DNA from: an uncultured Clostridia bacterium
GTDB taxonomy: Bacteria > Bacillota > Clostridia > Oscillospirales > Ruminococcaceae
Reading direction: 5' to 3'
Assembly: GCA_947628615.1 (NCBI GenBank)
Contig: CANRAO010000014.1
Coordinates: forward strand, 1-45,372
DNA length: 45,372 bases
Shown here: positions 18,437 to 45,372 of the stretch, piece after piece
Layout: each line of letters opens with the position of its first letter
Numbering within the stretch: position 1 is the stretch's first letter
The notes under the pieces: generated by a model
The model's database searches: none
Told to the model about the DNA's origin: nothing
Seen by the model: the letters and a program-made list of their open reading frames with translations, nothing else
Translations under genes and position numbers: made by a program

Positions 18437-18503
18437 AAAAGTTATCCTCTCTATGTAAAAACGAGAGCAAGAACCACTTGCCCTCTGTGATCATAATAAA
18501 AAA

Positions 18504-19580: not shown

Positions 19581-19603
19581 ATATATTCTTCTCTCTTTAA
19601 TTT

Positions 19604-21555: not shown

Positions 21556-21566
21556 CCCGCAACCTC

Positions 21567-22475
21567 CTAACTTCTTGACTTAGGATCAAGAGCGTCTCTC
21601 AATCCGTCACCGAACAGGTTAAACGCAAGCACAGCAAGTGTTATAGCAAGTCCGGGGAATATAAGCATATAAGGATATACTAAAATCATACTTCTTACAC
21701 GACCTAACATATCTCCCCATTCTGCCGTAGGCGGCTGAACGCCCAGACCTAAGAATCCCAAAGCGGCAGTATCAAGAATAGCCGTTGAAATTCCCAGAGT
21801 AGCTCTTACTACGATCGATGAAACTACGTTAGGTATGATGTGGTGGAATATGATTCTCCTATCGCTGTTTCCCAAAACCTTTGCCGCAGCGACATAGTCG
21901 TTTTCTTTTGTAGACAAAATAGAACTTCTAATAATTCTTGCGTATTCAGGAATTGAAACAACGCCGATAGCGATAATAGCCTTGTCAATACCTTTACCCA
22001 AAGCCGCCATAAGCGTAATAGCAAGCAATATAGACGGAATTGAAAGCATCATATCCATAATTCTCATAATAACGGCGTCAATCTTTCCACCGAAGTAACC
22101 TGCAATCGAACCGAGAATTGTTCCGATAAGAAGCGACATAGCGACCGCAGCAATACCTACAAATAGAGATACTCTTGTTCCGACGATTATACGGCTGAAA
22201 ATATCTCTTCCCAGATTATCAGTGCCGAACCAGTGTGCTGCTGACGGTTTCTGATATGCTTCGCTCATAACCTGAGCATTAGGGTCATAAGGTGTTATGT
22301 AAGGCCCTATGATTGCAATTATAACCAGAACAACGATAACAAACAGACCGAACAGAGCCGCTTTGTTTTTCTTAAGCGTATCCCACATCGCTTTAAATCG
22401 TGATTCAGGCTTTTCTATAGCGGCAGCCTCCTGAACGTCAACGCCGTCGGCTGCTAAAACTTTTTTTCTAGCCAT
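21567..22475 (-). CDS. oppC: Oligopeptide/dipeptide ABC transporter permease C subunit
   Basis: 302 aa inner membrane permease. A cytoplasmic N-terminal segment, one TM near 40-60, then [21 protein letters not shown], typical of OppC/DppC, and the EAA loop region [23 protein letters not shown] that contacts the ATPases. Starts at 22475 behind GAGGAG. Followed at 11 bp by oppD. Confidence 0.95.
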
Positions 22476-22563
22476 TAAAATTTACTCCTCTCATTGTTTT
22501 TGCATTAATTAAAAACAGTATAAATCTTATAGCAAAAACTTATATTTGAAAACCCTTGATTTG

Positions 22564-23580: not shown

Positions 23581-23782
23581 ATAAAATATCATTCCTTTCT
23601 GCACATTTACAAGCAGAATCCAAATCAGCCGGAATTAACTAATCGATTTAAACCTGCAAATCTGCATAAACTTTTTCACGCTATACCTATCTTTATAACT
23701 TTTCTATTTGAAAGCTATTAGTTCTCTTTTCAGCATATATTTTTCAGCTATGTACTTCAATGTATGCTGAAAATAAAACTGA

Positions 23783-23843
23783 TAAAAACAACAATGGCAA
23801 ATATAGAGAAAACGCCATTGTTTCCGTCATTCTCTATATTTGC
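23783..23843 (-). terminator. Attenuator-like hairpin between oppA and oppB
   Basis: On the minus strand GCAAATATAGAGAA (23843-23830) is a perfect 14-bp match to TTCTCTATATTTGC (23810-23797), followed by CATTGTTGTTTTTATC. Within the loop CAATGGC (23820-23814) can instead pair with GCCATTG (23798-23792), so two folds compete. It lies 20 bp past the oppA stop and is expected to end or stabilise most oppA transcripts, giving more binding protein than permease. Confidence 0.8.
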
Positions 23844-23864
23844 TTGTTGTAAAAAGTTTAAAAT

Positions 23865-25436
23865 TTAGTTTTTAGTAACCTTATACAGCTTAACTGTAGC
23901 TGTGCAGTGATATACGAAATCCTTAACATTCGACTTGCAAGCTGTAAGATCCTGCTGGTGTGAAATAGGCAGCCAGATTGCACGGTCTGCAACATACTGC
24001 TCCATATCAGCATACATCTTGTTTCTTGAGTCGCCTGCTGGCTCTTTAGCAGCGTCAGAGATCATCTTTGCATACTCTTTATATGCTGCCTTATCGTCCT
24101 TATTCTTAGCAAGGTTGAATCTTGCTACGTTCATTCCTGCGTTTGTATCGCTCATAAGGTTCATAAAGTTATCAGGGTCTCCGTTATCTCCCGACCAGCC
24201 ATAGAAACATATATCGTAGTCGCCTGCGATAGTTCTGTCTTTATATGTTGTCCAGTCATAAGCGTCAATAGTACACTCAACGCCGACATCTGCCAAATAT
24301 CCCTGAACTGCCTCAGTCAATGTCTGACCTGTAGCGGTATTATAAGGTCTTGGGTTTGTATATGTGATAACATGGAGCTTCTTAATGCCCTTCTTCTCAA
24401 GAGTTGCCTTTGCAGCGTCTTTATCATAAGCTATCTGCTTTACATCTTGGCTGTAGCCAGGAACAAATGAAGGAAGAACTGTTGTAGCCTTTTCAGCATA
24501 GCCGTTGTAAAGTGTCTGAACCATCTCGTCAACGTTTATAGCCTGTGAAAGAGCAACACGGGTTTCCTTGTCAAGTCTCTCAATGTTGTATGCCATATAG
24601 TTGATGTTCATACCCGGAGTCTGAGAAACTGTGATATTGCTGTCCTTCTTCAGGTTCTCCATCTGGTTTGTATCAATACCGTCGATAATGTCTACATCGC
24701 CTGACTGTAACTCAACTATCTTTGTTGAAGCGTCCTTGATAGTACGGATAACAACGTTCTTAGTCTTAGCCAGATTATCCTTATCCCAGTAATCCTCGTT
24801 AGCAACGAGCTTAACGTCCTGATCCTTGTTCCACTCAACGAACTTGTAAGGACCTGTACCTACAGGGTTGTTCATAAGATCGCCCTTTTGAGCAGCCGTA
24901 GGACTTACCATAGGTGCGCCGAATACCATTGCAAGGTTAGCAAGGAACGGTGTTGAAGGCTGTTTCAGTGTGATTTTGATTGTGTAATCGTCAACTACTT
25001 CACTCTTGTCAACATATCCCCATACGAAATCTGCGTATGTCATATCCTCAGTCTTGTTGATAGTGTTACGCTCAACATTGAATTTAACAGCCTCAGCGTT
25101 AAAGTCTGTTCCGTCGTGGAACTTAACGCCCTGTCTCAGCTTGAATGTGTAAACAAGTCCGTCATCAGAAATCTCCCATGACTCAGCTAAGCAAGGCTTG
25201 ACCTCTGTTGAATCGTCAGCATAGGTCAATAATCCCTCATAGATCTGGTTTGTGACCTTTGCAGATTCTCCGTCGTCAACAATCTGAGGGTCAAGACCTC
25301 TCGGGTCAGCACCCTGTGCGTAAACTAAAGTATCTGCACTTGATGAGCCGCCGGATTTCTTGTCTCCGCCGCAGGCTGCAAGACAGGATACTGCCATTAC
25401 CGCAGCCAATAATGCACTAAACACCTTTTTCTTCAT
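23865..25436 (-). CDS. oppA: Oligopeptide ABC transporter substrate-binding lipoprotein
   Basis: 523 aa. Lipoprotein signal peptide MKKKVFSALLAAVMAVSCLAACGG with lipobox LAAC (Cys22), then a Ser/Gly linker. The mature part is an SBP family 5 peptide-binding protein: LAESWEISDDGLVYTFKLRQGVKFHDGT, NPVGTGPYKFVEWNKDQ, SQAINVDEMVQTLYNGYAEKA. It captures peptides outside the membrane for OppBCDF. The ATG at 25436 follows GAAAGGAAG; the longer open frame upstream lies in the untranslated leader. The exact peptide specificity is not readable from sequence; the DppA/nickel branch is not excluded, but the peptidases downstream favour peptides. Confidence 0.95.
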   Translation of the reverse strand: MKKKVFSALLAAVMAVSCLAACGGDKKSGGSSSADTLVYAQGADPRGLDPQIVDDGESAKVTNQIYEGLLTYADDSTEVKPCLAESWEISDDGLVYTFKLRQGVKFHDGTDFNAEAVKFNVERNTINKTEDMTYADFVWGYVDKSEVVDDYTIKITLKQPSTPFLANLAMVFGAPMVSPTAAQKGDLMNNPVGTGPYKFVEWNKDQDVKLVANEDYWDKDNLAKTKNVVIRTIKDASTKIVELQSGDVDIIDGIDTNQMENLKKDSNITVSQTPGMNINYMAYNIERLDKETRVALSQAINVDEMVQTLYNGYAEKATTVLPSFVPGYSQDVKQIAYDKDAAKATLEKKGIKKLHVITYTNPRPYNTATGQTLTEAVQGYLADVGVECTIDAYDWTTYKDRTIAGDYDICFYGWSGDNGDPDNFMNLMSDTNAGMNVARFNLAKNKDDKAAYKEYAKMISDAAKEPAGDSRNKMYADMEQYVADRAIWLPISHQQDLTACKSNVKDFVYHCTATVKLYKVTKN

Positions 25437-25552
25437 GTCTTTTCTTCCTTTCAGTTTTACAAAAATAAGGACGCTCACAAAAACAATTACAAAACACATA
25501 TAGTTAATGTAAATGTGATTTAAAGCATCCTTGCCTTTGCTGTTTTTATTAC

Positions 25553-25570
25553 ACCCGAAATAAATCGGGT
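25553..25570 (-). promoter_or_regulatory. Hairpin at the 5' end of the oppA transcript
   Basis: ACCCGA-AATAAA/TTTATT-TCGGGT, a perfect 6-bp stem a few bases after the predicted start. It may stabilise the mRNA or serve as an operator. The rest of the ~335-bp stretch 25437-25771 shows only the promoter and AT-rich sequence. Confidence 0.4.
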
Positions 25571-25580
25571 TTAATACATT

Positions 25581-25610
25581 ATTATACACATATATTATAA
25601 ACTATTTCAA
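25581..25610 (-). promoter_or_regulatory. Promoter for the opp operon
   Basis: Minus-strand TTGAAA (25610-25605) and TATAAT (25586-25581) with an 18-bp spacer, leaving a leader of about 135 nt before oppA. Confidence 0.65.
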
Positions 25611-32589: not shown

Positions 32590-34164
32590 CTATTTCCACG
32601 CACTATTCAAAGTAATTACCTTATTGTTATTATAAACCTCAATCAGTCTGTCCTTAGTTATATATTTCTCCGAAAGACTGCCATCGTCGTTCATAATATA
32701 GTTTCCGCTCCAAACGCCGAACCACGACCACATCGCCTTATCACGAACCATATTGCTTATATCGGGTGTGTTTGCACACTCTGATAGTGTAATAGGCTTG
32801 TTCTTTGAAATATCATAAAGCGAAAGAAATGATTCGATCTGACTTGATTCACTTCCATTATCATAAATGTCGGCAGAAATTATATCGCAATATTTATCAC
32901 CCACATACCAGTCCTTGCTCTGGGCAGACCACACCCAGATAAGGTTGTCGAGCTTAAAATATTTAGTCTGACGCTCGTACATAAGCCTCCAAAGCCAGTT
33001 ATAGCTTTTAAAGCCTTTAGCTCCCCACCAGAAGCCCGCATTTTTCCTTGAAGCGTCATGCAAAGGTCTCCACAAAACAGGTATGTCAAGCTCCTTGAGC
33101 CTTAAAAGCTGCTTTGATACAGTATCAATATCTTTGACAAGTTCCACACACTCTTTTGAAATCTTTCCGTCTTTTTGCAGCTTTTCAATTTCCTTTATTG
33201 ATAGTTCTGCGATATTTTTATCCGTAACCGCCTTAGATAAATCAAAAGACGTTTCATCAGCATAATAGGCACTATCTTCAGGCGATTCCCAATGCCACAT
33301 ATAGCTTACAATTCCGCCCTTTTTTGCCCACTCAATTGCCTGCTCGGTTTCATTAACCTCCAGCGAATCTGACGTATAAGAAAGCATATCTCCGCATCTT
33401 ATTGCTGGATATTTCCCGGTCGTTTTATAAATAAGTTCAAGCTCATTATTTGTTCCTACAGATGCATACTGACCGCTTAATATTTTCTTTCCGTAGTTTT
33501 TTAGAATGCTATTGTATAATTTGAGTGTATTTTTGTTCTTTGATTTATTTATGAGTTTAGGTTTGTTTTTGAATTCAAACGACAGATTTGATATATCGTC
33601 TGACGCCTCAACCTTAATATTATCAACAGCAATTTCTCCGTCATAAGCAACAACAGAAACAGTAAAACTGTCCTCGTCGATATACTGATTTTTAAAACTG
33701 ACAGTTTCAAACTTACCGCTTCCCGATGAAGCAAATCTTTTTATCTCATTACCGTTTACGGCAAATGCATTGACAACCTCATTTTTTGTCATTATTCTGA
33801 GGGTAATATCATAATACTGCTTGATCTTTGGGGAAAACTTTACGCTGAGCGTTCCTTTTCCATCAGAACTCAACCCTTCCACATATCCTTTTCCTTTGTA
33901 CCCTTTTACTTTTTTAGACACCTTTGCGTTTCCCTTTAAAGTGCCCGACTCTGCCTCTACTGTTTTTGAATACTTGACATATTTCGGGGTGGGCGCATTT
34001 ATCTCCTTTTCAGAATACACAGGAACTTCCTTAGTATCGTCCTCAACACTTTTGAAATTGCCTTCTGAACTTGTATCAATCTGCATTGTCTGAATCTTAC
34101 CGCAGCCTGAAAATGCCGTTGTTATAATGAATAATGCACTTAAAATTGCTATTATTTTTTTCAT
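32590..34164 (-). CDS. GH26 family lipoprotein with CBM35-like domain (putative beta-mannanase)
   Basis: 524 aa. Lipoprotein signal with lipobox FSGC (Cys21), an acidic linker, then a CBM35-like beta-sandwich (about 67-187; VEAESGTLKGNA..NIKVE) and a GH26 TIM barrel (about 210-520). Typical GH26 text: KKILSGQYAS, GGIVSYMWHW, IPVLWRPLHDAS, FWWGAKG, LIWVWSAQ, DIISADIYD, PITLSECAN. The expected nucleophile is Glu462. The acid/base position after WRPLH is Asp370, whereas the family normally has Glu. Predicted to act on surface-bound mannan, with activity uncertain. ATG at 34164 begins a textbook signal peptide (GGTG 6 nt upstream); an open frame extends upstream without stop to 34323. Confidence 0.88.
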   Translation of the reverse strand: MKKIIAILSALFIITTAFSGCGKIQTMQIDTSSEGNFKSVEDDTKEVPVYSEKEINAPTPKYVKYSKTVEAESGTLKGNAKVSKKVKGYKGKGYVEGLSSDGKGTLSVKFSPKIKQYYDITLRIMTKNEVVNAFAVNGNEIKRFASSGSGKFETVSFKNQYIDEDSFTVSVVAYDGEIAVDNIKVEASDDISNLSFEFKNKPKLINKSKNKNTLKLYNSILKNYGKKILSGQYASVGTNNELELIYKTTGKYPAIRCGDMLSYTSDSLEVNETEQAIEWAKKGGIVSYMWHWESPEDSAYYADETSFDLSKAVTDKNIAELSIKEIEKLQKDGKISKECVELVKDIDTVSKQLLRLKELDIPVLWRPLHDASRKNAGFWWGAKGFKSYNWLWRLMYERQTKYFKLDNLIWVWSAQSKDWYVGDKYCDIISADIYDNGSESSQIESFLSLYDISKNKPITLSECANTPDISNMVRDKAMWSWFGVWSGNYIMNDDGSLSEKYITKDRLIEVYNNNKVITLNSAWK

Positions 34165-34205
34165 ATAAATCACCATACCTTTGCTTGCAAAGGCTCTCCT
34201 TTGAG

Positions 34206-34230
34206 CGGTTTTATGAGCCGGTTTCGGCTC
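34206..34230. repeat. GAGCCG-GTTT-CGGCTC hairpin upstream of the GH26 gene
   Basis: A perfect 6-bp stem with tetraloop at about 34210-34225. Stem and neighbouring GGCAGAG text resemble the hairpin GAGCCG-GTGG-CGGCTC inside the 112-bp repeat. It lies in the GH26 leader. Confidence 0.45.
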
Positions 34231-34345
34231 TGCCGAAATTGCCGCATTGATATTTGCGACAAAGGCTAGTAATTCGTGCGCGAAAAGCATTTTTACGCTA
34301 ACTCCTTTAAATATTTCTTGCACTAAATACTATACGAATTTGTTT

Positions 34346-36631
34346 CTACACTATTTTCACTTGATACGATTTTCCCTTGCAGGTATCAAATACAACCGCA
34401 CCGTCCTTTTCCTCACAGTGTATCTCCTCACCGTCACAGTAAACCTTAACAGTCACATTAACAACAAGCCTGCAAGTCTCGCCGCAGTTTGAAACTATCA
34501 AAGCCTCTTGAAGTTTTGAATTTTCCCACTTGCAGGAGACAGTAAATCCGCCCCTTGCTTTTAGGTTTTCAAACGAACCGTTCCCCCACTCTTTAGGCAG
34601 TGCAGGAAGTAAAATAAGTTCCTGATTAATACTTTGTAATAAAGCCTCTGATATTCCAGCCACACCGCCGAAATTTCCGTCGATCTGAAACGGCGGGTGA
34701 TTATCAAACATATTCTTGTTTGTCGAATAAGACAAAAGTGCCTCAATGTTTTCATAAACTTTTTCGCCATCGTTAAGCCTTGCCCAAAGATTAATTATCC
34801 AAGCTCTGCTCCAGCCTGTATGACCTCCTCCGTGAGAAAGCCTTCTTTCGATCGTTGCTCTTGCAGCGTCCGCCAGCTTAGGCGTTTTTCTTACAGAAAT
34901 CATATCAGCCGGATATAATGCAAACAACTGTGAAATATGTCTGTGACCCGGCTCGGCTTCATCATAGTCTACAGCCCATTCCTTTATCTGACCGTACTTT
35001 CCTATCTCAGGTTTGGGGAGCCTTTCCCGCATTGACTTTAGCTTATCTGCGTAGTCAGAATCAACGCCCAAAATATCGCTTGACTTAATTACCGCCGTAA
35101 ACAGCTCGTAAATTATCTGACTGTCCATAGAAGGTCCTATGCAAAGCGAACCCTTTTCACCTGATTCTGTAATATATGTATTCTCAGGAGAAACAGACGG
35201 GCAGGTCACAAGCTGACCGTTTTTATTTTCGATAAGAAAATCCGTAAAAAACTCGCTTGCCTCTTTTATGGTTTCATATTTTTCCTTTAAGAAGTCCTTA
35301 TCCATAGTGAACATATAATGTTCCCATATATGCAGACAAAGCCACGCAGCACCCATAGGCCACTGTGTTGCAGGCATCCACAAATCCTGCGGTGCAGTAT
35401 CACCCCAAAGGTCAGTGTTATGATGGCAGACAAAGCCTTTGCAGTCATACATTTCTCTTGCAGTTATTTTGCCGTTCGGACGCATTTTCTCTATAAGGTC
35501 AAAAAGCGGATTTGCCAGTTCTGATAAACCAGAGCTTTCAACAGGCCAGTAATTCATCTCAGTATTTATATTAATCGTAAACTTACAGCCCCACGCAGGC
35601 CACATATCCTTGTTCCATATTCCCTGAAGATTCAAAGGCAGCGTTCCCTCACGGCTTCCCGCAATCATAAGATACCGAGCGAAGTTATAGTAAAGCTCGA
35701 TCAGCTTGTTGTCTTTTCCTCCGCTTTGTATATTTGCTAGCCGTTCATCTGTCGGGAGTTCAGATTTTCCTCCGCTGTTATCTTCAAGCTCTATTTTAAC
35801 CCTGTCATAATACTTTTTATAATCCCTGATATGGCGTTCTTTTATGTCTGCAAACGACAGCTTTACAGCCTTTTCAATATCTTTTTTAGCCTCTTTTTTG
35901 TAGTCATCATATCTGTAGCTTGTCTGGCAGGAAATTAAAATAGTTACCTCATCACATTTCTCTGCGATAATAAAACTGCCCCAGCGTTTAACTATACCAG
36001 AATCCGCAATAACTTTTATATAAGACGCAAAATTTATTCCGTCCTCTCCGCCCATTCCGCCGTAATAGAATATTTCGTCGTCAGACACAGGCGAGTTATC
36101 GTCAAAGTAATCATCTCTGCCGTCAATATGTATGCGAATATTAATGCTTTCCTTTTTATCAGCCCTGATATTGACAGCCAGAACATTATCAGGATATGAC
36201 GCTATGACCTCACGAATATATTTTACTCCGTTTGACGAAAACTCAACAGACTGTACCGCTGTTTCAAGGTCAAGACTTCTCTTATAATTATGTATATCGC
36301 CTAAACCTCTTTGGTCGATAATAAAATCTCCCAACGGCATATAGTGACGCTGATTTATAGGAGTTCCGCAGAATGCGTCATGCACTATCTCTTCCGCCTC
36401 AGAAATTTTCTCCTCAAACAAAAGCTGTCTTACCTTTTTAAGATTTTCAAGCGCAGACATATTGTTTCTCTTTCTGTATCCGCCCGACCATATTGAATCC
36501 TCATTGAGTGAAATCGTGTCATAGTATGGATTTCCGTATACCATACCGCCTATTCTTCCGTTTCCGACAGGAAGCGCCTCGTTCCAGTCCTCAGCCCATT
36601 TATTATACCAAAGCTCTGTTGATGTTTTCAT
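34346..36631 (-). CDS. GH95 glycoside hydrolase (putative alpha-L-fucosidase)
   Basis: 761 aa, no signal peptide, so probably cytoplasmic. The N-terminal beta domain begins with WNEALPVGNGRIGGMVYGNPYYDTISLNEDSIWSGG (residues 17-50). The (alpha/alpha)6 barrel has GIWNKDMWPAWGCKFTININTEMNYWP (N354, N356), CHHNTDLWGD, PSVSPENTY, EWAVDYDEAEPGHRHISQLFALYP and QIDGNFGGVAGISEALLQS (D651), all conserved in GH95. Known members release alpha-1,2-fucose or alpha-galactose by inversion. Being intracellular, it would act on imported oligosaccharides, matching the adjacent sugar permease operon. ATG at 36631 behind GAGGAG, own promoter. Confidence 0.93.
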   Translation of the reverse strand: MKTSTELWYNKWAEDWNEALPVGNGRIGGMVYGNPYYDTISLNEDSIWSGGYRKRNNMSALENLKKVRQLLFEEKISEAEEIVHDAFCGTPINQRHYMPLGDFIIDQRGLGDIHNYKRSLDLETAVQSVEFSSNGVKYIREVIASYPDNVLAVNIRADKKESINIRIHIDGRDDYFDDNSPVSDDEIFYYGGMGGEDGINFASYIKVIADSGIVKRWGSFIIAEKCDEVTILISCQTSYRYDDYKKEAKKDIEKAVKLSFADIKERHIRDYKKYYDRVKIELEDNSGGKSELPTDERLANIQSGGKDNKLIELYYNFARYLMIAGSREGTLPLNLQGIWNKDMWPAWGCKFTININTEMNYWPVESSGLSELANPLFDLIEKMRPNGKITAREMYDCKGFVCHHNTDLWGDTAPQDLWMPATQWPMGAAWLCLHIWEHYMFTMDKDFLKEKYETIKEASEFFTDFLIENKNGQLVTCPSVSPENTYITESGEKGSLCIGPSMDSQIIYELFTAVIKSSDILGVDSDYADKLKSMRERLPKPEIGKYGQIKEWAVDYDEAEPGHRHISQLFALYPADMISVRKTPKLADAARATIERRLSHGGGHTGWSRAWIINLWARLNDGEKVYENIEALLSYSTNKNMFDNHPPFQIDGNFGGVAGISEALLQSINQELILLPALPKEWGNGSFENLKARGGFTVSCKWENSKLQEALIVSNCGETCRLVVNVTVKVYCDGEEIHCEEKDGAVVFDTCKGKSYQVKIV

Positions 36632-36780: not shown

Positions 36781-36810
36781 AAAAAAGCCGACCGAATAAA
36801 TCGGTCGGCT
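36781..36810 (-). terminator. Strong terminator of the sugar permease operon
   Basis: Perfect 10-bp stem AGCCGACCGA/TCGGTCGGCT with 5-nt loop and a run of six U on the minus strand, 18 bp past the last permease stop. It separates the operon from the GH95 gene. Confidence 0.93.
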
Positions 36811-36828: not shown

Positions 36829-37875
36829 TTATCCAACAAGTCCCGAACGCTCAATACCTTCTGTAAAGTATTTCTGTAAGAATACATACATAACAAGTAT
36901 AGGAGTTATTGCAAGAATACATCCTGATTCAAGCCAAACAATCATCTGACGAGGACCTACTGTCTGGTTATCAAACAACTCCGACTGAAGCGTTGCAGTC
37001 AGGTTTTTAAGCATTAATGCAACGGTATCATTCTGATTGAAGAATGATGACGATACATAGTAGTCATTCCAGTACCATACAACCGAGAACAGGAATACTG
37101 TCAAGAATGATGATGCAGCGTTAGGAACCATTACAACGATAAATGTTTTAAGCGGTCCGCATCCGTCAAGATAAGCTGCGTCCTCGAGTTCCTTCGGAAG
37201 TCCCCTGAAGAATTGCCTAAATATAAGGATAAACAGTCCGGCTCTCAAGCCGTTAGCGAACAACGCCGGCAAATACATTGTAAGACCGCTGTTGATAAGT
37301 GAGATCGTATCACCTGTGAATAGCTTAACCAATCCCAGCGGATTGAAGTATGAATACTGCATATACAGTGGGATCGTAGTAATCTGAGGCGGTACTATGA
37401 TCATCAAAACAACAATTACAAACAAAAAACCTTTGCCCTTGAAGTTAAATCTTGCAAATCCGTAGCCAGTAATCGCACAGGTAATAACCTGAAGGATTGA
37501 AGCCACAAGGTTCAGCTTTATTGTGTTAAGAACAGTTGCACCGTACTTCATAACATCCCATGTTTCCTTAATGTTTTGAAGCGTCAGACTCTTTGGAATC
37601 CATACTATTGATGGATCATTCATCTGATCATTAGGTCTGAACGCCGTTGAAATCATGAATATCAAGGGATACAGAATGACAAAACACAAACCAAACAGAA
37701 TTAAAAATCTGAATATCGGCCAAACTGAACTTGTAAAGGCTTTACGTCTGTTATACCTTTTTTGTTCGGGGGTGATCTCTATAGTGATTCCGGCTTCTTT
37801 CATAGCTTTTAACTTAGCTTTTTTAGCGGCTTTCATTTCTTTTTCAAAGCGCTTTTCTTCTTTTTTAGTTGCCAT
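36829..37875 (-). CDS. Carbohydrate ABC transporter permease, MalG type (second pair)
   Basis: 348 aa. An unusual, highly charged N-terminal extension (about 1-45, Lys/Glu-rich, probably coiled coil) precedes six TM segments. The EAA loop ELEDAAYLDGCGPLKTFIVVMVPN is the ATPase contact of sugar permeases; the C-terminus FLQKYFTEGIERSGLVG is typical of MalG-like proteins. Works with the preceding MalF-type permease; the ATPase must be supplied from elsewhere (MsmX/MsmK type, inference). Last gene of the operon. Confidence 0.93.
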   Translation of the reverse strand: MATKKEEKRFEKEMKAAKKAKLKAMKEAGITIEITPEQKRYNRRKAFTSSVWPIFRFLILFGLCFVILYPLIFMISTAFRPNDQMNDPSIVWIPKSLTLQNIKETWDVMKYGATVLNTIKLNLVASILQVITCAITGYGFARFNFKGKGFLFVIVVLMIIVPPQITTIPLYMQYSYFNPLGLVKLFTGDTISLINSGLTMYLPALFANGLRAGLFILIFRQFFRGLPKELEDAAYLDGCGPLKTFIVVMVPNAASSFLTVFLFSVVWYWNDYYVSSSFFNQNDTVALMLKNLTATLQSELFDNQTVGPRQMIVWLESGCILAITPILVMYVFLQKYFTEGIERSGLVG

Positions 37876-37887
37876 CTATATCCCCCC

Positions 37888-38874
37888 TTATCCTACTTCG
37901 TAATATACAAACTTGTTTATAATAGCAACAAGTATCGCCAACGCCACTCCGACTATCAGGAAGTATGCCCATGCCATCGCAGACATATATCCATAATTCC
38001 AGTCGCTTCCCTGCGTCAGAATAAGTTTCATAACCTTATTCTCAGGATCAACGAACGAGTCGATAACTGTGTAAACTAAACTTGCTAGTATCATCGGGCT
38101 TATGTATGGAATTGTAATCTTCCAGAAGTATTCCCAAGCAGTTGCACCCTCCATCTGAGCTGCTTCCTTTGCGGAGAACGGTATGTTCTGCAAAGCCGCT
38201 AAAAACAGAAGAATCTGAATACCCGAGTTCCATACAAGGTTGAATATGTCAGAGGTTACTGATGTGATCGTATTGGTAAGAGTATCGCTTATTCCGTATA
38301 TTCCGAGAAACTCCAGCAACTGATCGACCAGATCGGTTTCAAAGAGCGTGTTGAACTGCTCTCCGCCTCCTGCTGCATATCCGCCGGTATCCATATTACC
38401 GTTAATTACTTCAATTACAGGTCCCGTTGCTATAATAACAGGCAGGAAGAAAACTGCTCTTGCAAAAGTTCTTCCTCTGAACTTCTGATTTAATATAACT
38501 GCCACGAATATCGAGAATATAATGATCAGCGGCGTTTTCAAAGCTGTAGAACCAAGTATCTCAACTAAATACTGTGAATAATACTGGTCTTTTCTAAAGG
38601 CATCATGATAGTGACCAAGACCGTTCCATTCAAGCTGCATAACTCCTCTTTGAGGCTGAGTCTCGTTAAACGAATAAACTAACGACTCAAACAGAGGCAA
38701 AATAAAGAAATAAATCGTTCCTATGAGCCACAGTGCAATAAATGCGTATCCGTAAAGAGCCTTTCTTCTTTCATACGGAATTTTTAGTCCCTTTTGCTTA
38801 ACGCCTTTTGGAGGTTTCAGGGCCTTTACTTCTTCCTTTGTAGGTGTTGAAACAACATTTTCTGTGTTTGTCAT
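37888..38874 (-). CDS. Carbohydrate ABC transporter permease, MalF type (second pair)
   Basis: 328 aa. A charged N-terminal tail, then YGYAFIALWLIGTIYFFILPLFESLVYSFNE as first TM and six TM in total. EAA loop SAKEAAQMEGATAWEYFWKITIPYISP. The periplasm-side loop between the first and second TM segments is typical of MalF-like permeases. Its ATG overlaps the DUF5696 stop (TAATG), suggesting translational coupling between the exported protein and the permease. MalG partner follows after 12 bp. Confidence 0.93.
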   Translation of the reverse strand: MTNTENVVSTPTKEEVKALKPPKGVKQKGLKIPYERRKALYGYAFIALWLIGTIYFFILPLFESLVYSFNETQPQRGVMQLEWNGLGHYHDAFRKDQYYSQYLVEILGSTALKTPLIIIFSIFVAVILNQKFRGRTFARAVFFLPVIIATGPVIEVINGNMDTGGYAAGGGEQFNTLFETDLVDQLLEFLGIYGISDTLTNTITSVTSDIFNLVWNSGIQILLFLAALQNIPFSAKEAAQMEGATAWEYFWKITIPYISPMILASLVYTVIDSFVDPENKVMKLILTQGSDWNYGYMSAMAWAYFLIVGVALAILVAIINKFVYYEVG

Positions 38875-41261
38875 TAGCCTTGTGCGCCTCCTTCCTTAAT
38901 AACCTGACTGACATCAACATTAGATCCGTCGATTGAAACCGCTCCTTTGTTCAAATCGACCTGTACAACTGTTTCTGCTGCACTTCCGTCTTCGCTTCCA
39001 TAGGTCGTTTTCAAAATGTTGTTCTGTCTGTCAATTTCAAAATTAGTAATTACCTTATTGCTTACTGCTCCCAAAACCTGTTTTGCAGCCTTTGATTCAG
39101 CAGCTGCCGTGTCGATCCAGCCCTCATAATTTGCATAGTACAAATCACTGTATGCAGTATCAGACAGCTTTGAACTCTGCTCATACAGCATATCATAATG
39201 CAGTGACGAACCGTATGCAAGTGCCAGCAAGAATGTTTCTTCTGAATTAGAGCTCTTGTTTATTGCCTGTGTTGAATAAGGTACATATCCGTGAACTACC
39301 ATCTGATAGAAAGGTATATCATAGTCAACAATATTGAAACCGCTCGAATTAACAGGAATATTTGTAACATGGTCAACATATGGGAGAATATAAGAATTTG
39401 CCCCATCTGCCAAAATTGAACCTACGTCTTTATTCGCCTTTTCATAACCCTCAAGAATGGTGTTCATCGTATCTTGTCTGCTGGAGAAATTCTTCTCTGA
39501 GAAGTCGGAAACAAGTTTTGAAGAAAAACCGCCGAATGAAATATTCTTCAATTCTTCGTCTTTATAGCTTGTAATGATCTCATTAAACACCTTTGAGTAA
39601 ACCGTCGGCGTCAAAAGTGCCGGAGCAGTATCCGTAGCTCCGCCGAATGCCGGGTTGTACTGAATTTGTCTCGAATAAGCATTTGAAACTCTCGTAGCTG
39701 TGCTGGAGAACGTCCAATATCCCCACGAACTGCTTTCCATCTCCATATTGTCAATAGCCGGATAGACCTTAATTCCGTTAGACTCGGCAAAGGACATCAT
39801 ATCTTCAAAATCTCCTCTTCCGCCGAGAGTTCCCGCAGGCTTTGCCTTTGTGGAAATCTTCTTTGCTATAGACTTATCCGTCCAGTCGTTATAGTTTGCA
39901 ATTATGTCTGTTACTCCATTATCCTGAAGCTTCTCAAGAATCGTTTTTGCCTGTTTAAATGAAGTAACCGAAGTTTTCAAGTCAAACGGTATTCCGAGAA
40001 TTGATTTCTGCATTACAACTCCGCCGTACAAGTCTACATAAAGGTTTGATTGGTTTTCCGCTACTTTTGAAGTAAGACCCTTATTCTTAATCAGATAGTT
40101 TCTGTAAACCCTTGCGCAGTCTGCATAGTTTACATCATTCTTCTTAGCAATTGGATAATAAGTTACTGCGATTTCCTCCTGAACAATGCTGCCTTTCTGG
40201 AAAACCTCAAGCGGATCAGACTCACCGCTTAAATAGTAGTCGTCAGAAGTTCTTACCTCAAAGCTGAAATAAGAATTATTGTAAGTCTGATTGTTCTGCC
40301 CGCTTACCTGCGCATTTACAGAAACATTTGCGTCGCCGCTTGTTGCAACCGCCACAAGCGCCTTATTACCTGAAACAGTTGCCGTTACCGGCATATAAGC
40401 CTGCTCTGTAGTTTTAGAAGCTGTCAACGGAACAGTTGTGTAGTCTCTTCCGTAAACCTTTTGAGAATACGAACTTGAATAACTTGATTTTCCGTTGTTA
40501 AATTCAATAACAGCGCCGCTTCCGTCCGGTACTATCATATAGCCGTTTACTGTTTTTCCATTTAAGTCTTTAGCAGGCGCCGCACCAAATGATGGCGTTA
40601 GCTGAATCTGAGTTATAACCTTTCCGTCTTTAACAGAAATGTTATCCTCTTTTATCTTTGACGTATCACACGAAACCTTCAATGAATCATCACCCAAGGT
40701 ATATTCCACTGGAATCGTGAACCCGTCTGTGAAGTCGTATGTAAAAACAACTCCGTCGTTTTTAGTTTCTATTTTAGTTTTGCAAATATCTCTTGTTCTT
40801 GAAGCTACTCCGGAATACAGAGGAGAAGTTGTTCTCTTGGCCTGATCACCGTATTCAAGAGCCAGACCTGAGTTTAACTGCTGTCTCTGGGTATCCTTCA
40901 TATAGGAATCTCCCCTTGCCGTCTTGCCAAGCGGAGTATCGTCTGCTAAAGCATTAATAGGAGTACTCCACCAATAGTTAGGCGTCGACAATGATTTATC
41001 AAGAAGACAAACCCTTTCATTTTCTTCATCGTACCAAAGCTCGAGATTTCCGGCTTGTGCAGCTTTTTTACAGTTTTTAAACGCCTGCTCGTCAGTAATC
41101 TTTGCCGGAAGCTCATTCATACTTGTGCTTTGAGACGTTGAAGAATTACTTTTATCTGCTGCATCAGTCTCTTCGTCAGTTGAACCTACCAAAGTTCCGA
41201 TAGGAAGCATCATGGCAACAACTAATGCAGATATAATGATTTTTCTTAATCTCTCATGCAT
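38874..41261 (-). CDS. DUF5696 family large exported protein
   Basis: 795 aa. Signal peptide (RLRKIIISALVVAMMLPIGTLVG, no lipobox), a Ser/Thr-rich linker, then an all-beta region (about 60-370) with family text NGYMIVPDGSGAVIEFNNGK. A C-terminal region (about 410-720) reads like a TIM barrel: KTILEKLQDNGVTDIIANYNDW, LGGRGDFEDMMSFAESNGIKVYPAIDNMEM. I recognise DUF5696, commonly seen beside sugar ABC permeases; no activity is established to my knowledge. The beta-sandwich plus barrel layout resembles glycoside hydrolases of the GH31/GH97/GH101 kind (inference). Acidic candidates are Asp/Glu in NYNDWTD and PAIDNMEME. It lies between a YIP1 protein and a MalF permease. Confidence 0.85.
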   Translation of the reverse strand: MHERLRKIIISALVVAMMLPIGTLVGSTDEETDAADKSNSSTSQSTSMNELPAKITDEQAFKNCKKAAQAGNLELWYDEENERVCLLDKSLSTPNYWWSTPINALADDTPLGKTARGDSYMKDTQRQQLNSGLALEYGDQAKRTTSPLYSGVASRTRDICKTKIETKNDGVVFTYDFTDGFTIPVEYTLGDDSLKVSCDTSKIKEDNISVKDGKVITQIQLTPSFGAAPAKDLNGKTVNGYMIVPDGSGAVIEFNNGKSSYSSSYSQKVYGRDYTTVPLTASKTTEQAYMPVTATVSGNKALVAVATSGDANVSVNAQVSGQNNQTYNNSYFSFEVRTSDDYYLSGESDPLEVFQKGSIVQEEIAVTYYPIAKKNDVNYADCARVYRNYLIKNKGLTSKVAENQSNLYVDLYGGVVMQKSILGIPFDLKTSVTSFKQAKTILEKLQDNGVTDIIANYNDWTDKSIAKKISTKAKPAGTLGGRGDFEDMMSFAESNGIKVYPAIDNMEMESSSWGYWTFSSTATRVSNAYSRQIQYNPAFGGATDTAPALLTPTVYSKVFNEIITSYKDEELKNISFGGFSSKLVSDFSEKNFSSRQDTMNTILEGYEKANKDVGSILADGANSYILPYVDHVTNIPVNSSGFNIVDYDIPFYQMVVHGYVPYSTQAINKSSNSEETFLLALAYGSSLHYDMLYEQSSKLSDTAYSDLYYANYEGWIDTAAAESKAAKQVLGAVSNKVITNFEIDRQNNILKTTYGSEDGSAAETVVQVDLNKGAVSIDGSNVDVSQVIKEGGAQG

Positions 41262-41275
41262 AATTATTACCTCCT

Positions 41276-41905
41276 TTAACCTCTGAACCGATATGTCAAC
41301 TCTGTGTAGATCGATGCAATAAACACATATACTTGCTGGAACAAGCTAATCAAAAGAACTAACAAGAATAGAATTACCAGCATTGCCACCAGCGTAAATA
41401 CAATTGAAAGTAGTGTTTTCGGGAACGAGTACTGGTGAACCGTCCTTATCGCCTGAATCATCAGAACAACTGACCATCCCAGTCCAACATAGTAAATTAC
41501 ATTCATCCAAACTATCTCATCGCTGACAATAAAGTTAGAGATAAACACGCTTAAAAATGTACCAACGATATACGGTACTAATGCATATGCCGAATAAATG
41601 CAAATTCTCTTGATTGTTCCCTCGCCGTTAAAGAGTGTACACAAAGCCCAGTTTGCTATTACCCATGTAAAAAAGTAAACGATACTTTGCACAAATAACG
41701 GAACAACATTAAATATCTTTACATATGAACCATTAAACTGAAATCCTGTAAGCTGTCTGTTTACAACCATGGCTACGAAAAGCAATAGCACAATTACCAT
41801 TGAAATTTTCATAGAACCTTTTTTCTTCCACCGTAAATCATCATATCCCTCAACCGGATGGAAAATAACATGCTTCAACCAACCGAGCTCTGAAAATTCA
41901 TACAT
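41276..41905 (-). CDS. YIP1 family membrane protein
   Basis: 209 aa with about five or six TM segments. The N-terminus WLKHVIFHPVEGYDDLRWKKKGS is the cytoplasmic lead-in typical of bacterial YIP1 domain proteins, and CTLFNGEGTIKRICIYSAYALVPYIVG is the characteristic core. The molecular role in bacteria is unknown. It is placed 1 bp after the NHL/TPR gene and 14 bp before DUF5696, so the three are almost certainly co-translated and may form one membrane complex (inference). Confidence 0.86.
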   Translation of the reverse strand: MYEFSELGWLKHVIFHPVEGYDDLRWKKKGSMKISMVIVLLLFVAMVVNRQLTGFQFNGSYVKIFNVVPLFVQSIVYFFTWVIANWALCTLFNGEGTIKRICIYSAYALVPYIVGTFLSVFISNFIVSDEIVWMNVIYYVGLGWSVVLMIQAIRTVHQYSFPKTLLSIVFTLVAMLVILFLLVLLISLFQQVYVFIASIYTELTYRFRG

Positions 41906-41906
41906 A

Positions 41907-43535
41907 TTATTTACCCTCCTTTTCCGGTTTCTTTTTTAGCTTAGGCATTTTTATTATGCCTTTCTTGAACAGCTTCCGCAATACTATGATCGCAACTATT
42001 ATAATAAGTAAAATTATTATAATCAAAGTGAAATTTGCTCTAAGAAAATCGTCACGTTCATATTTATAAGCTCTGTCATATGAACTTTTTGCAACAGAAA
42101 CCTTGAAGTTTTCCATAGCCTTATCATATTCGCCCGTGTTAAGATAAGCCTTTCCGAGACCGTAATATGCTAATGAATATCCGCCATCTCTCTTGATTAC
42201 CTCGTTCCACGGGTCAATAGCCTGCTCATAAAGTCCCTTCTCGTAAAGGGCAGCCGCCTCGTGAACATATTTTCCGAAGGTCGTTTCAACGAAAATTGTT
42301 ATATCGTTTTTCTTACCGTCAATAACATAAATCTTTTCGCCAATCGCCTCAATACCGTTCGGTGCTGTGAAAGTACCTCTCTGATCTGACGTTCCGTTCT
42401 TTGTACCGAATATGAACAGCAAATCATTGTCCTGAGTGTACTGGAATACACGTCCTGTTTCATAGTCCAAAAGATTTATAATTCCGTCATCCCCGACTAC
42501 AATATCCGTAAGTCTTGAAGCATATTTGCTTGTATCGCAATCCGCAAACTCAGGTAAATCACCGAATTCATACTCGTTTCCGGTAGCAGTATTCCAAATG
42601 TTTTCACCGGCAGGATTCAGCTTTTTAACTGCGTCGGTAGACGCGTTTGCAGCCTCTGTTACGGTGTAAATAAATCCTTCGCTGTCAATATCAAAGTTTG
42701 CATATTCTACAGGAACGTTTCTCGTCATTGAAGCTATTTGCTCGTTTGAAGCAAATTTTCTCCAGATCGCCTGACGAATAACAGCAGCCGTCTGTTCAAC
42801 TCTGTTAGCTCCGTAGAAACCAGTAAATTCACCCGTTTCACTGAATACAACAGCTCCCGTTGTTACCGATGAAACAACTACATATAGAATTCCAGCACTG
42901 TCAACCAAAATCTTTGACGGATTAAACGTTCGTGAAGCATTTGCATAAAGCTCTGAATCAGGCTTTGTGTACTCAAACATACATTTCGCAGAGTTCTTCG
43001 ACTCCGCAACAGCCTTTACAACTCTTGCATTTTTATTGTCCGCAACATAGAATACAGGCTTGTTAGTTGCCTTGTCTATATTAACATATACACCTGTCGG
43101 ATTTGAAAAGGTCGAAAGACCTGTTTCTGCATCAACTGATGTTTGGGAATTTGAAACTCCCTTATAGCATCCGATAACCTTTAGGTTAGAGTCAGTTCTC
43201 AAAATTCTGTCATTATCCGAATCTGCTATCCAAAACTCTTTTGTATTTTTTTCGTAAAATATATCGGAAGCACCTGAAAGGTTAGTAGGCTCGGTTTCAC
43301 TGACAAATAAATCACTTTTCGGATCAGCCAGCTTATCGAGCTCCATCTCATAGCCGGTAATAGTCTCATCAACTCTGTATCCGCTCTGAGACGGAATAGC
43401 GTCTCCCCAAGCGTCGTAGTTATATGATACATACGGTTCACCCGCATAAGCAGTCAGGGACATTGCCACTGTTATGCTTAGTGCGAGTCCGACTGAGATA
43501 ATATTTTTTATGTGTTTTTTCATTCTCGACACCAT
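41907..43535 (-). CDS. Membrane-anchored NHL beta-propeller / TPR protein
   Basis: 542 aa. Signal peptide ending near AYA-G (about residue 32). Residues ~85-430 hold repeated NHL-like blades (EFWIADSDNDRILRTDSNLKVIG, PVFYVADNKNARVVKA, GILYVVV, GIINLLDYETGRVFQYTQDNDLLFIFG, FTAPNGIEAIGEKIYVID). Residues ~430-490 contain two TPR-like helices pairs (AAALYEKGLYEQAIDPWNEVI, YYGLGKAYLNTGEYDKAMENF). One C-terminal TM (about 498-518) and a Lys-rich cytoplasmic tail follow. It thus presents a propeller and TPR outside the cell. It may bind glycan or scaffold the transporter (inference). ATG at 43535 follows AAAAAGGTG; 43523 is an alternative. Confidence 0.83.
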   Translation of the reverse strand: MVSRMKKHIKNIISVGLALSITVAMSLTAYAGEPYVSYNYDAWGDAIPSQSGYRVDETITGYEMELDKLADPKSDLFVSETEPTNLSGASDIFYEKNTKEFWIADSDNDRILRTDSNLKVIGCYKGVSNSQTSVDAETGLSTFSNPTGVYVNIDKATNKPVFYVADNKNARVVKAVAESKNSAKCMFEYTKPDSELYANASRTFNPSKILVDSAGILYVVVSSVTTGAVVFSETGEFTGFYGANRVEQTAAVIRQAIWRKFASNEQIASMTRNVPVEYANFDIDSEGFIYTVTEAANASTDAVKKLNPAGENIWNTATGNEYEFGDLPEFADCDTSKYASRLTDIVVGDDGIINLLDYETGRVFQYTQDNDLLFIFGTKNGTSDQRGTFTAPNGIEAIGEKIYVIDGKKNDITIFVETTFGKYVHEAAALYEKGLYEQAIDPWNEVIKRDGGYSLAYYGLGKAYLNTGEYDKAMENFKVSVAKSSYDRAYKYERDDFLRANFTLIIIILLIIIVAIIVLRKLFKKGIIKMPKLKKKPEKEGK

Positions 43536-43577
43536 TATCACCTTTTTTCCTTTTTAATATATTTGAATAATTATCCG

Positions 43578-44474
43578 TTAGTCTTTAATTCCTGAATTAG
43601 CCATTGTTTCCATTACATTACCTTGAGCTATCATGAATACGACCAGCGGAGGAATTAAAAGTAATACTGCTGTCGCAAACGTTACGCCCTGACGGGCAAT
43701 ACCCGCAGCTGTTATCTGCTGCAAAATTGTCGGAAGCGTTTTAAGTTCCTCTGAATAAATCAGAGATCCGCCTTGAATCTGCCATGCTGCCTGGAATGCA
43801 AAGATGATAAGCGTCATCAATGCAGGCTTTGAGTTTGGAATAACTATTCCCCAGCAGATTCTGAAAAGTCCTGCGCCGTCAACCTTAGCAGCTTCAATCA
43901 TTGAATCGTGAATTGTAGAAATGCTCTGCCTCATCAAGAACAAGTTCATAGGAGTTGCGATACTCGGAAGTATAAGTGCCCAATATGTATCGATCATACC
44001 GAGTTTTGCCATTACTAAGAACTGCATGATCCACAATGCCTGCGATGTAAACAAAAGAGCTGTTACAATGATCTTGTTGATCACATTGCTTCCCGGAAAT
44101 CTGCATTTTGCAAGTACGAATGCTGCCATACAAGATACAAACAGATTGGCAACCGTTACAACGATCGTAACAAATACGCTGTTGAAAATGTATCTGGAAA
44201 GCGGGACCCATAAACTTGCAGCTATTTTAAACATATCCGAATAGTTAGTTAAAGTTGGATCTAAAACGTAAAGCTTAGGCGGGAATACGAATAGCTCATG
44301 CACCGGTTTGAAGGATTGAATAAGTGCATAGTAAATAGGGAAAATCATAAATATTCCGAGCAAGCACAGAAACAGGAAAATCACTATATCTCCGCCAAGA
44401 GAACCGTTTACTCTCTTTTTCTTGTCTCTGACCTTCAGCTTTTCAATATCCTTCTTCTTTCTCTTTTTTGACAT
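43578..44474 (-). CDS. Carbohydrate ABC transporter permease, MalG type (first pair)
   Basis: 298 aa. Lys/Arg-rich N-terminal tail (about 1-22) and six TM segments. EAA loop SMIEAAKVDGAGLFRICWGIVIPNSKP. It differs clearly from the second MalG-type permease (36829-37875) in sequence and length, so the two are not a recent duplication. Pairs with the MalF-type permease upstream (16-bp gap). Confidence 0.93.
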   Translation of the reverse strand: MSKKRKKKDIEKLKVRDKKKRVNGSLGGDIVIFLFLCLLGIFMIFPIYYALIQSFKPVHELFVFPPKLYVLDPTLTNYSDMFKIAASLWVPLSRYIFNSVFVTIVVTVANLFVSCMAAFVLAKCRFPGSNVINKIIVTALLFTSQALWIMQFLVMAKLGMIDTYWALILPSIATPMNLFLMRQSISTIHDSMIEAAKVDGAGLFRICWGIVIPNSKPALMTLIIFAFQAAWQIQGGSLIYSEELKTLPTILQQITAAGIARQGVTFATAVLLLIPPLVVFMIAQGNVMETMANSGIKD

Positions 44475-44490
44475 ATCGTATTCACCTCCC

Positions 44491-45372
44491 CTAATCTAAG
44501 TATTTGGCAAGCAGCCAGTTAATAAACTTATTTACCAACAGCATCGCGGCGAATAATACGAAACATATTGCCGAAGCATATCCCATTTCGTAACGTATTG
44601 TTCCGTAGTCGGTAGCGTGGTTCATTATTGTGTGTACCTTGTAGTCTGTAGAAGGCAAACCGATAAGCGATTGTCCTACAACTCCGACTGTGAATGCCGC
44701 TGAAATCTGGAGTACAGCTGCGAATAACAGCTGCGGTCCCATTGAAGGAATAGTGATGGTGAAAAGCTCCTGCCATCTGTTTTTGATTCCTTCGATTGCT
44801 CCTGCTTCGTACATCGACTTGTCAATGTTCTGGAAACCTGCACGGAGTGCCAAGAATCCTGCACCCATTGAAATCCATAACTGAACCACAATAACAACTC
44901 CGAACATATAGGCTGTATCTGTCAGCCACTGAACAGGTGCGTTTATAAAGCCTAAGTCTAGTAATACCGAGTTGAAATATCCGTATGTATCTCCCGAGAA
45001 CAGCAACTGCCATATTACATAAACAGAAGGCGTCATTGAAGGAGCGTAGAATACGAATGTAAAAATTGTTTTCAAAGCAGGGTGCATTTCATTTATGAGC
45101 CAAGCTAGGAAAAAGCTTAGAACATAACTGAACGGACCTGTAAAAATTGCAAATACCAATGTGTTTTTAACCGCTGTTAAGAATATGTCGTCATTCAAAA
45201 ACAGGGTATAAAAGTTTGATAAACCGATAAACTTTGGAAATTGCACCATATTAAAGTTTGTAAATCCCATAGGTAGCGACATTATAACAGGGATTATCAT
45301 AAATATTGTAAACAATATCATAAAAGGAGCAAGCATTCCATAGCAACCGATATTTACTCTCATCTGATGCAG
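44491..45372 (-). CDS. Carbohydrate ABC transporter permease, MalF type (first pair), probably 5'-truncated by the window
   Basis: At least 290 aa visible from an in-frame ATG at 45363. First TM GMLAPFMILFTIFMIIPVIMSLPMGFTNFN, EAA loop YEAGAIEGIKNRWQELFTITIPSMGP, six TM in all. The reading frame stays open to the window edge (codons for L-H-Q before the ATG), and no Shine-Dalgarno sequence can be judged, so the true start may lie outside. First visible gene of the seven-gene operon; a solute-binding protein gene may lie further upstream. Confidence 0.9.
   Translation of the reverse strand: MHQMRVNIGCYGMLAPFMILFTIFMIIPVIMSLPMGFTNFNMVQFPKFIGLSNFYTLFLNDDIFLTAVKNTLVFAIFTGPFSYVLSFFLAWLINEMHPALKTIFTFVFYAPSMTPSVYVIWQLLFSGDTYGYFNSVLLDLGFINAPVQWLTDTAYMFGVVIVVQLWISMGAGFLALRAGFQNIDKSMYEAGAIEGIKNRWQELFTITIPSMGPQLLFAAVLQISAAFTVGVVGQSLIGLPSTDYKVHTIMNHATDYGTIRYEMGYASAICFVLFAAMLLVNKFINWLLAKYLD

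What the first reader, a model, noticed from the sequence alone, without database searches (positions are those of the whole stretch)
36829..45372. Seven-gene operon: two sugar-permease pairs enclosing NHL/TPR, YIP1 and DUF5696 proteins
All seven genes run leftward with gaps of 1-42 bp or TAATG overlaps and end at one strong terminator. Two non-identical MalF/MalG pairs flank three proteins of unknown role: an exported propeller/TPR protein with C-terminal anchor, a YIP1 membrane protein and a large exported DUF5696 protein. There is no ATPase and no binding protein in the visible part. Permeases normally come as one pair with a binding protein; here the middle trio may capture, process or hand over a glycan to two transport channels, or regulate them. 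I recall DUF5696 and YIP1 genes near sugar permeases in other Firmicutes, but know of no described function.
Basis: partly seen in the sequence, partly recalled or inferred. Interest (0 to 1): 0.7.

Follow-up and report, generated by a model that had tools for sequence, protein, structure and literature searches.

The report
Two-channel sugar uptake gene cluster
A gut bacterium carries a sugar-import gene set with two membrane channels, one oversized sugar-catching protein and three companion proteins; the same set recurs in the same order across many distantly related bacteria, which suggests it works as one machine although it has been described only in passing.

Summary
The contig ends inside the first permease gene; the next gene (adjoining contig, 77-bp overlap) is a 985-aa solute-binding protein (SBP1). 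SBP1–MF1–MG1–NHL/TPR–(Yip1)–DUF5696–MF2–MG2 stands in exactly this order in 90 of 97 full-flank loci of the window's class and in 13 of 21 further phylum or plasmid loci. Yip1 is a separate gene or appears fused to the NHL/TPR protein. DUF5696 folds like GH129 glycosidases, but the GH129 catalytic pair is mostly missing. By my reading, the four permeases are the only sugar-type (CUT1) ones in this 93%-complete genome, which has one MalK/MsmK-type ATPase; in two other loci such a gene lies directly upstream of SBP1. One locus is the xylan operon of Anaerocellum bescii (xloEFG-X-GH129-axoFGE): xylan-induced, and growth on xylan is impaired without MsmK (published). Most likely: an MsmK-powered oligosaccharide importer with two permease pairs, a carbohydrate-binding SBP, a membrane-anchored NHL–Yip1 scaffold and a largely non-catalytic GH129-like glycan binder. 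That it is one complex is inferred, not shown. New variant of a known kind.

The parts
44491..45372 (-). MF1: MalF-type permease of pair 1, N-terminus cut off by the contig end (293 aa; 317 aa in relatives); EAA loop EAGAIEG...
   Evidence: (BPD_transp_1 36.6 bits)
43578..44474 (-). MG1: MalG-type permease of pair 1 (298 aa); EAA loop EAAKVDG...
   Evidence: (41.5 bits)
41907..43541 (-). NHL/TPR protein (544 aa): N-terminal hydrophobic segment, NHL repeats, TPR near residues 430-490, C-terminal TM segment; proposed extracellular scaffold
   Evidence: Yip1-fused form in relatives
41276..41905 (-). Yip1 family membrane protein (209 aa); proposed assembly partner
   Evidence: 61 bits; apparently fused to NHL/TPR in 22 of 90 exact-order loci
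38874..41261 (-). DUF5696 protein (795 aa): N-terminal hydrophobic segment, GH129-like fold, canonical GH129 catalytic pair not kept
   Evidence: (558 bits)
37888..38874 (-). MF2: MalF-type permease of pair 2 (328 aa); EAA loop EAAQMEG...
   Evidence: (20.2 bits, under the Pfam cut-off); 25% identical to MF1
36829..37875 (-). MG2: MalG-type permease of pair 2 (348 aa); EAA loop DAAYLDG...
   Evidence: (50.8 bits); 19% identical to MG1
36786..36810 (-). Intrinsic-terminator-like hairpin closing the operon
   Evidence: 10 pairs, 7 G-C, T run
34346..36631 (-). GH95 enzyme downstream of the terminator; also the next gene after MG2 in the fetched same-genus loci
32590..34323 (-). GH26 enzyme, lineage-specific neighbour

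Best explanation
The genes encode one oligosaccharide-uptake machine: a CUT1-type ABC importer with two MalF/MalG heterodimers. SBP1 (two N-terminal beta-sandwich domains, a helical bundle and a maltose-binding-protein-like domain) catches the oligosaccharide outside the cell. The NHL propeller/TPR protein, anchored by its C-terminal TM segment and acting together with Yip1, is a membrane scaffold that holds SBP1 (which mostly lacks a lipid anchor) and DUF5696 over the permeases. DUF5696 is a GH129-fold protein that in most members has lost the GH129 catalytic pair; it most likely binds or threads the glycan rather than cutting it. ATP comes from the shared MsmK-type ATPase encoded elsewhere. 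Shown here: gene order, fusion, folds, missing catalytic residues, genome inventory of permeases and ATPase. From print: xylan induction of the A. bescii locus and the MsmK requirement. Inferred: physical assembly, scaffold role, glycan binding by DUF5696.
Against: No direct evidence of a complex. The A. bescii authors treat the same genes as two transporters (XloEFG, AxoFGE). In 6 of 21 phylum-level loci the set is permuted or only NHL-DUF5696-MF2-MG2 is seen in the fetched stretch, so the blocks can be encoded apart. Many loci have extra SBPs next to MG2 (SBP_bac_1 in 11 of 59 first downstream genes scanned), which could serve pair 2. Two LolD-like ATPases precede SBP1 in many Ruminococcus-like loci and are unexplained. 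In DUF5696, D586 and D646 are kept in 95 and 92 of 115, and an acidic residue stands at both GH129 columns in 20 of 115 (26 within two residues), so altered catalysis is not excluded; the true D/E-plus-E pair is kept in 1 of 115 and 3 of 21. MG2 lacks even a loose EAA pattern in 8 of 91.
Confidence: 0.55

Rival explanations
1. Two ordinary CUT1 importers that are merely co-expressed: importer 1 = SBP1-MF1-MG1, importer 2 = MF2-MG2 with lipoprotein SBPs, each with its own substrate; NHL, Yip1 and DUF5696 are accessories of one of them (gene linkage points to importer 2).
For: PMC8579813 annotates XloEFG and AxoFGE as two transporters. Block NHL-DUF5696-MF2-MG2 is permuted or alone in the stretch in 6 of 21 phylum-level loci. 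SBPs follow MG2 in 11 of 59 scanned neighbours and lie downstream in L228 and L229. SBPs without permease genes nearby exist in this genome.
Against: In the window's class the two pairs are nearly always together (90 of 97). All 6 genomes searched (three whose fetched locus showed the block alone, three more of the same two families) encode SBP1.
Confidence: 0.3
2. DUF5696 is an active surface glycosidase that trims the captured glycan before import, as the published 'GH129' label implies.
Against: D/E at the nucleophile column together with E at the acid/base column in only 1 of 115 operon members (4 within two residues), while 5 of 5 short non-operon homologues keep both.
Confidence: 0.25
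3. One permease pair with the NHL-Yip1 protein is a sensor that monitors transport and signals to regulation, rather than a second channel.
For: Propeller and TPR domains are common in interaction and signalling proteins (general knowledge).
Against: All four permeases keep coupling loops in most loci; the Pfam scans of the window trio and of five fusions listed no signalling domain above cut-off.
Confidence: 0.07
4. The two LolD-like ATPases upstream, not MsmK, drive the permeases, perhaps for export.
For: An ATPB gene directly precedes SBP1 in 42 of the 90 exact-order loci; both ATPases are nearest to the LolD profile.
Against: Not called in the other 48, some of which have little sequence upstream of SBP1; in L080, a same-genus locus with full flank, a 636-aa ORF directly precedes SBP1. 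MsmK/UgpC-type genes take the same place in L176 and L229; SBP1 implies import.
Confidence: 0.05

Closest known systems
Xylan degradation locus (XDL) of Anaerocellum (Caldicellulosiruptor) bescii, xloEFG-X-GH129-axoFGE (PMC8579813)
   Same: Same gene order; L208 contains the exact published operator before SBP1. Gene roles map one to one.
   Different: In print it is two transporters plus X and GH129; there a further SBP (AxoE) follows MG2, and X is an NHL-Yip1 fusion (716 aa). In the window Yip1 is separate, no SBP follows MG2, and GH95/GH26 stand where xylanases do.
CUT1 ABC importers with shared ATPase MsmK/MsmX
   Same: MalF/MalG-type permeases with EAA loops, sugar SBP, no MalK-type ATPase gene beside most loci
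   Different: Two permease pairs, an oversized SBP mostly without lipobox, and three extra conserved subunits
GH129 (NagBb of Bifidobacterium bifidum; ZgGH129 of Zobellia galactanivorans)
   Different: 11-14% identity in the structural alignments; GH129 catalytic pair not kept in most operon members
YknWXYZ of Bacillus (YknW is a Yip1 family protein that modulates assembly of an ABC transporter; PMC4887032, passages read)
   Same: Yip1 protein as a companion of an ABC transporter
   Different: YknYZ is a MacB-like exporter; no such permease is among this operon's genes
Butyrivibrio fibrisolvens plasmid pNP243 and Paenibacillus cellulosilyticus plasmid loci (annotation as in PLSDB)
   Same: Complete module in the same order with the same domain names
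   Different: I know of no study of them; Paenibacillus has ugpC in front and the Yip1 fusion

Membership tests
CUT1-type (MalFG/MsmFG) sugar ABC importer | Two permease subunits with BPD_transp_1 domain and EAA loop | tested here: met
   MF2 is under the Pfam cut-off (20.2 against 26.4 bits) but carries EAAQMEG and matches UgpA, below that model's own cut-off
CUT1-type (MalFG/MsmFG) sugar ABC importer | Sugar solute-binding protein in the operon | tested here: met
   SBP1 on the overlapping contig; nearest structures are oligosaccharide SBPs
CUT1-type (MalFG/MsmFG) sugar ABC importer | MalK/MsmK-type ATPase with OB/TOBE domain available | tested here: met
   One in the genome, not in the operon itself; adjacent to the module in L176 and L229
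CUT1-type (MalFG/MsmFG) sugar ABC importer | A single permease pair per system | tested here: not met
   Two pairs in 90 of 97 full-flank loci. So it is filed as a variant built from CUT1 parts, not as an ordinary member
CUT1-type (MalFG/MsmFG) sugar ABC importer | ATP-dependent sugar uptake | not testable with these tools
   Needs transport assays
GH129 | Fold: N-terminal beta-sandwich plus TIM barrel like NagBb | tested here: met
GH129 | Catalytic nucleophile Asp and acid/base Glu (NagBb D435, E478: roles recalled, positions read from the alignment) | tested here: not met
   Window protein has Gly and Asp at these columns. Both kept in 1 of 115 and 3 of 21 operon members; any acidic residue at both in 20 of 115
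GH129 | Pfam Glyco_hydro_129 sequence match | tested here: not met
   Not listed for the window protein (E up to 0.01) nor for the L163 and L177 members (E up to 1); a weak match for the short homologue L195
Yip1 family (PF04893) | Pfam Yip1 domain above cut-off | tested here: met
   61 bits against 28.6
YknWXYZ / MacAB-like exporter | MacB/FtsX-type permease in the operon | tested here: not met
   Pfam scans of the window genes and of the SBP and ATPase genes in the relative L075 list none

The most novel reading that the evidence does not exclude
An obligate dual-channel ABC importer: two different MalFG heterodimers, powered by one MsmK, sit in one assembly around an NHL-Yip1 scaffold, fed by a carbohydrate-binding SBP and a pseudo-glycosidase that presents long glycans, giving Gram-positive bacteria a surface machine that plays the part SusCD plays in Bacteroidota.
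Probability: 0.3. Interest if true: 0.85.

Novelty: new variant of a known kind. Interest (0 to 1): 0.6.

Why it matters
DUF5696 (no paper found by that name) and this Yip1 group lack an assigned role in sugar uptake as far as my searches show. A fixed eight-role module that recurs in Clostridia and in a Paenibacillus (Bacilli) gives both a testable one and suggests that some Gram-positive glycan importers have extra subunits beyond the textbook SBP-permease-ATPase set. The A. bescii locus is genetically tractable and already known to be xylan-induced, so the idea can be tested at once. It also warns that a 'GH129' label on these genes may mark a non-catalytic protein.

Tried and rejected
phmmer of the DUF5696 protein against solved structures gave nothing at E up to 1, so the fold route was taken. 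A profile of A1 gave a 69-residue match to ZgGH129 and repeat-protein noise; the residue mapping therefore rests on the short homologue L195 aligned to NagBb and on MAFFT, a remote alignment. 'Longer extracellular loop in MF2' was checked and dropped: only about 13 residues longer than in MF1. Lipobox counts are by a simple pattern: SBP1 6 of 90, DUF5696 15 of 91, NHL 2 of 91, against 11 of 16 hand-picked SBP candidates beside the module, one of them truncated; a rough guide only. EAA misses were re-examined with a looser pattern: 4 of 4 MF1, 9 of 10 MG1, 13 of 16 MF2 and 4 of 12 MG2 misses then match. The N-terminal domains of SBP1 were not searched alone; CBM_35 matches are under cut-off. 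The 999-aa frame with a weak permease match (C19) was not inspected. Literature searches: DUF5696, YIP1 with ABC transporter, permease and NHL repeat (25), Yip1 family protein with ABC transporter, MsmK and shared ATPase, GH129 with ABC transporter and permease, Athe_0176-0181 (50), Caldicellulosiruptor xylan degradation locus (53), two permease pairs, NHL/Yip1/PF18952 combinations, XloEFG/AxoFGE/Csac_2415/2416 (109). Among the listings and passages I saw, no paper describes the module as a unit; only open-access papers are held. Passages read of PMC4887032, PMC8579813 (also the whole of section 16), PMC12285236, PMC5658599, PMC11212667, PMC4300822, PMC12838199; the rest seen in listings only. 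Sampling: loci were chosen by hand from the listed matches (40 stretches after, 40 after, 20 stretches covering 19 places) plus all 51 and two plasmids; of 132 stretches (window included), 7 with short or distant homologues (L195-L201) were dropped, then 10 duplicates, then 18 with cut flanks, leaving 97.
Full report
OBSERVATION. The window is a complete contig (G000:C14, 45,372 bp) of a 1.86-Mb, 93%-complete assembly; its closest named relatives are Clostridia MAGs called 'Lapin' (rabbit, by the name). The rightmost gene is cut by the contig end. SBP1, found with the SBP of a relative, lies at the left end of contig C22 on the matching strand, and the two contig ends share exactly 77 bases. 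So the operon goes on with a 985-aa SBP, a 351-aa LolD-like ATPase with a C-terminal MazE/AbrB-like domain and a roughly 225-aa LolD-like ATPase, then thrS (ATPase domains scanned on the closely similar L075 genes, thrS by my reading).

CONSERVATION. I built profiles for ten roles and called them on the window, the start of C22 and 131 fetched stretches. 125 stretches held a DUF5696 gene above 400 bits; 10 were duplicates, leaving 115, of which 97 had enough flank. 90 of 97 show exactly SBP1-MF1-MG1-NHL-(YIP)-DUF5696-MF2-MG2. The seven exceptions: two YIP calls in a row (L045), MF2-MG2 moved upstream (L064), MG1 not called (L071, L175), DUF5696 in two pieces (L165), MG2 not found nearby (L122, L123). 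A further 21 loci from the phylum sample and from two plasmids (Butyrivibrio fibrisolvens, Paenibacillus cellulosilyticus) gave 13 exact; L210 has MG1 in two pieces, L220-L222 run NHL-DUF5696-MF2-MG2-SBP1-MF1-MG1 (two of them with one role not called), L216, L218 and L224 show NHL-DUF5696-MF2-MG2 without SBP1 in the stretch (L218 is a 13-kb contig), and L223 is partial. Six genomes searched with the SBP1 profile (G506, G525 and G484, which hold the last three, plus G578, G607 and G544 of the same two families) all encode SBP1. DUF5696 above cut-off occurs in 96 of 391 class genomes and 39 of 398 phylum genomes, short non-operon homologues included. The seven window genes are under purifying selection against L077 (dN/dS 0.00-0.08).

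FUSION. Of the 90, 65 have a called Yip1 gene between NHL and DUF5696 and 3 more (L042, L090, L095) have one by tblastn that my ORF resolver dropped. In the remaining 22 the NHL protein is 676-915 aa with extra hydrophobic segments; Pfam finds Yip1 at the C-terminus of 5 of 5 tested, one below cut-off. Paenibacillus carries a 724-aa NHL-type protein annotated as YIP1 family. NHL/TPR and Yip1 thus behave as one functional unit.

SBP1. Pfam and structure place residues of about 570-977 with oligosaccharide SBPs (Tlet_1705, cycloalternan-binding Lmo0181, CbpB, beta-1,2-glucan SBP). The model (pLDDT 82) has two N-terminal beta-sandwich domains and a helical bundle in front, with CBM_35 matches under cut-off. 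A lipobox pattern is seen in 6 of 90 SBP1 proteins against 11 of 16 hand-picked SBPs beside the module, so SBP1 probably needs another anchor; the TM-anchored NHL/TPR protein is the obvious candidate (inference).

MOTOR. The genome has 12 matches to the permease domain. Apart from the four here they are, by my reading of the ORFs and the scan, an oligopeptide-type pair, a Pst pair, a Pot pair with its own ATPase, one Ssu-like protein and one weak hit in a 999-aa frame that I did not inspect. It has one OB_MalK ATPase, on C22 about 17 kb from SBP1. 14 of 15 genus genomes have exactly one, G012 none. In 155 stretches searched with it, three MsmK-like genes scored above 150 bits; two lie 29 and 37 bp upstream of SBP1 (L176; L229, annotated ugpC), the third is near the short homologue L195. 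The LolD-like ATPB precedes SBP1 in 42 of 90; it is not called in the rest, some of which lack upstream sequence, and L080 of the same genus has a 636-aa ORF there instead. So these ATPases are unlikely to be the general motor; their role is open.

LINK TO PRINT. PMC8579813 lists the A. bescii operon xloEFG-X-GH129-axoFGE-xynF-xynE..., up on xylan (proximal XDL genes in the 10- to 100-fold group) and reports that msmK deletion severely impairs growth on cellobiose, cellulose, xylan and pectin (passages and section 16 read). PMC12285236 gives the XDL operator. One phylum genome (2.9 Mb, 3 contigs) carries that 28-nt probe exactly, about 150 bp before SBP1, followed by SBP1-MF1-MG1-NHL.Yip1-DUF5696-MF2-MG2 and a 601-aa gene in the place of axoE. 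So that genome is A. bescii or a near relative, and X and GH129 are the NHL-Yip1 fusion and DUF5696. In C. saccharolyticus the transporter genes named (Csac_2412, Csac_2417-2419) and XynF as Csac_2411 fit one gene per role (PMC5658599, passages; sequence not seen). L167 shows the module next to GH10 and GH43-CBM-GH43-CBM6 genes laid out like XynF. Elsewhere the first gene after MG2 (59 scanned of 71 within 600 bp; 12 same-genus repeats left out) matches SBP_bac_1 in 11, GH95 in 4, GDSL esterase in 4, GH36 in 3, and many others once or twice: the module seems generic, the substrate varies.

VERDICT. An ancient, fixed module built from CUT1 importer parts plus three conserved companions. Import of oligosaccharides, powered by MsmK, is well supported though not tested directly. 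One assembly with two channels is plausible but unproven; two co-expressed importers sharing a scaffold is the main rival. For this organism, the GH95 and GH26 neighbours suggest a fucosylated or mannan-type plant glycan, but the substrate is not established.

Noticed in passing
L132:3226-5026 (G000:C22), - strand: Two LolD-like ATPase genes between thrS and SBP1, one with a C-terminal MazE/AbrB-like domain, with no permease gene beside them other than the CUT1 ones; seen in many Ruminococcus-like loci, role unknown.
   Followed up: partly
L206:5062-6471; L207:2293-3711 and 3915-5351: Three lipoprotein-like SBPs (469, 472, 478 aa) with no permease genes in the fetched stretches, in a genome whose only CUT1 permeases (by my reading) are the four of this operon: candidate extra binding proteins for it.
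   Followed up: partly
L195-L199: Short (about 560-600 aa) DUF5696 homologues outside the operon keep both GH129 catalytic residues, so PF18952 mixes probable active glycosidases with the operon type.
   Followed up: partly
window 16997-25589: Oligopeptide-type ABC importer genes with M20 and M24 peptidase genes, probably peptide uptake.
   Followed up: no
L228 (Butyrivibrio fibrisolvens pNP243): The complete module sits on a 243-kb plasmid with a GH43 gene and two further SBPs, so it can be carried on replicons other than the chromosome.
   Followed up: no
L127:1-8190 (G000:C22): Two adjacent very large proteins (898 aa or more, and 1644 aa) that begin with the same signal-like sequence, next to the MsmK gene.
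   Followed up: no
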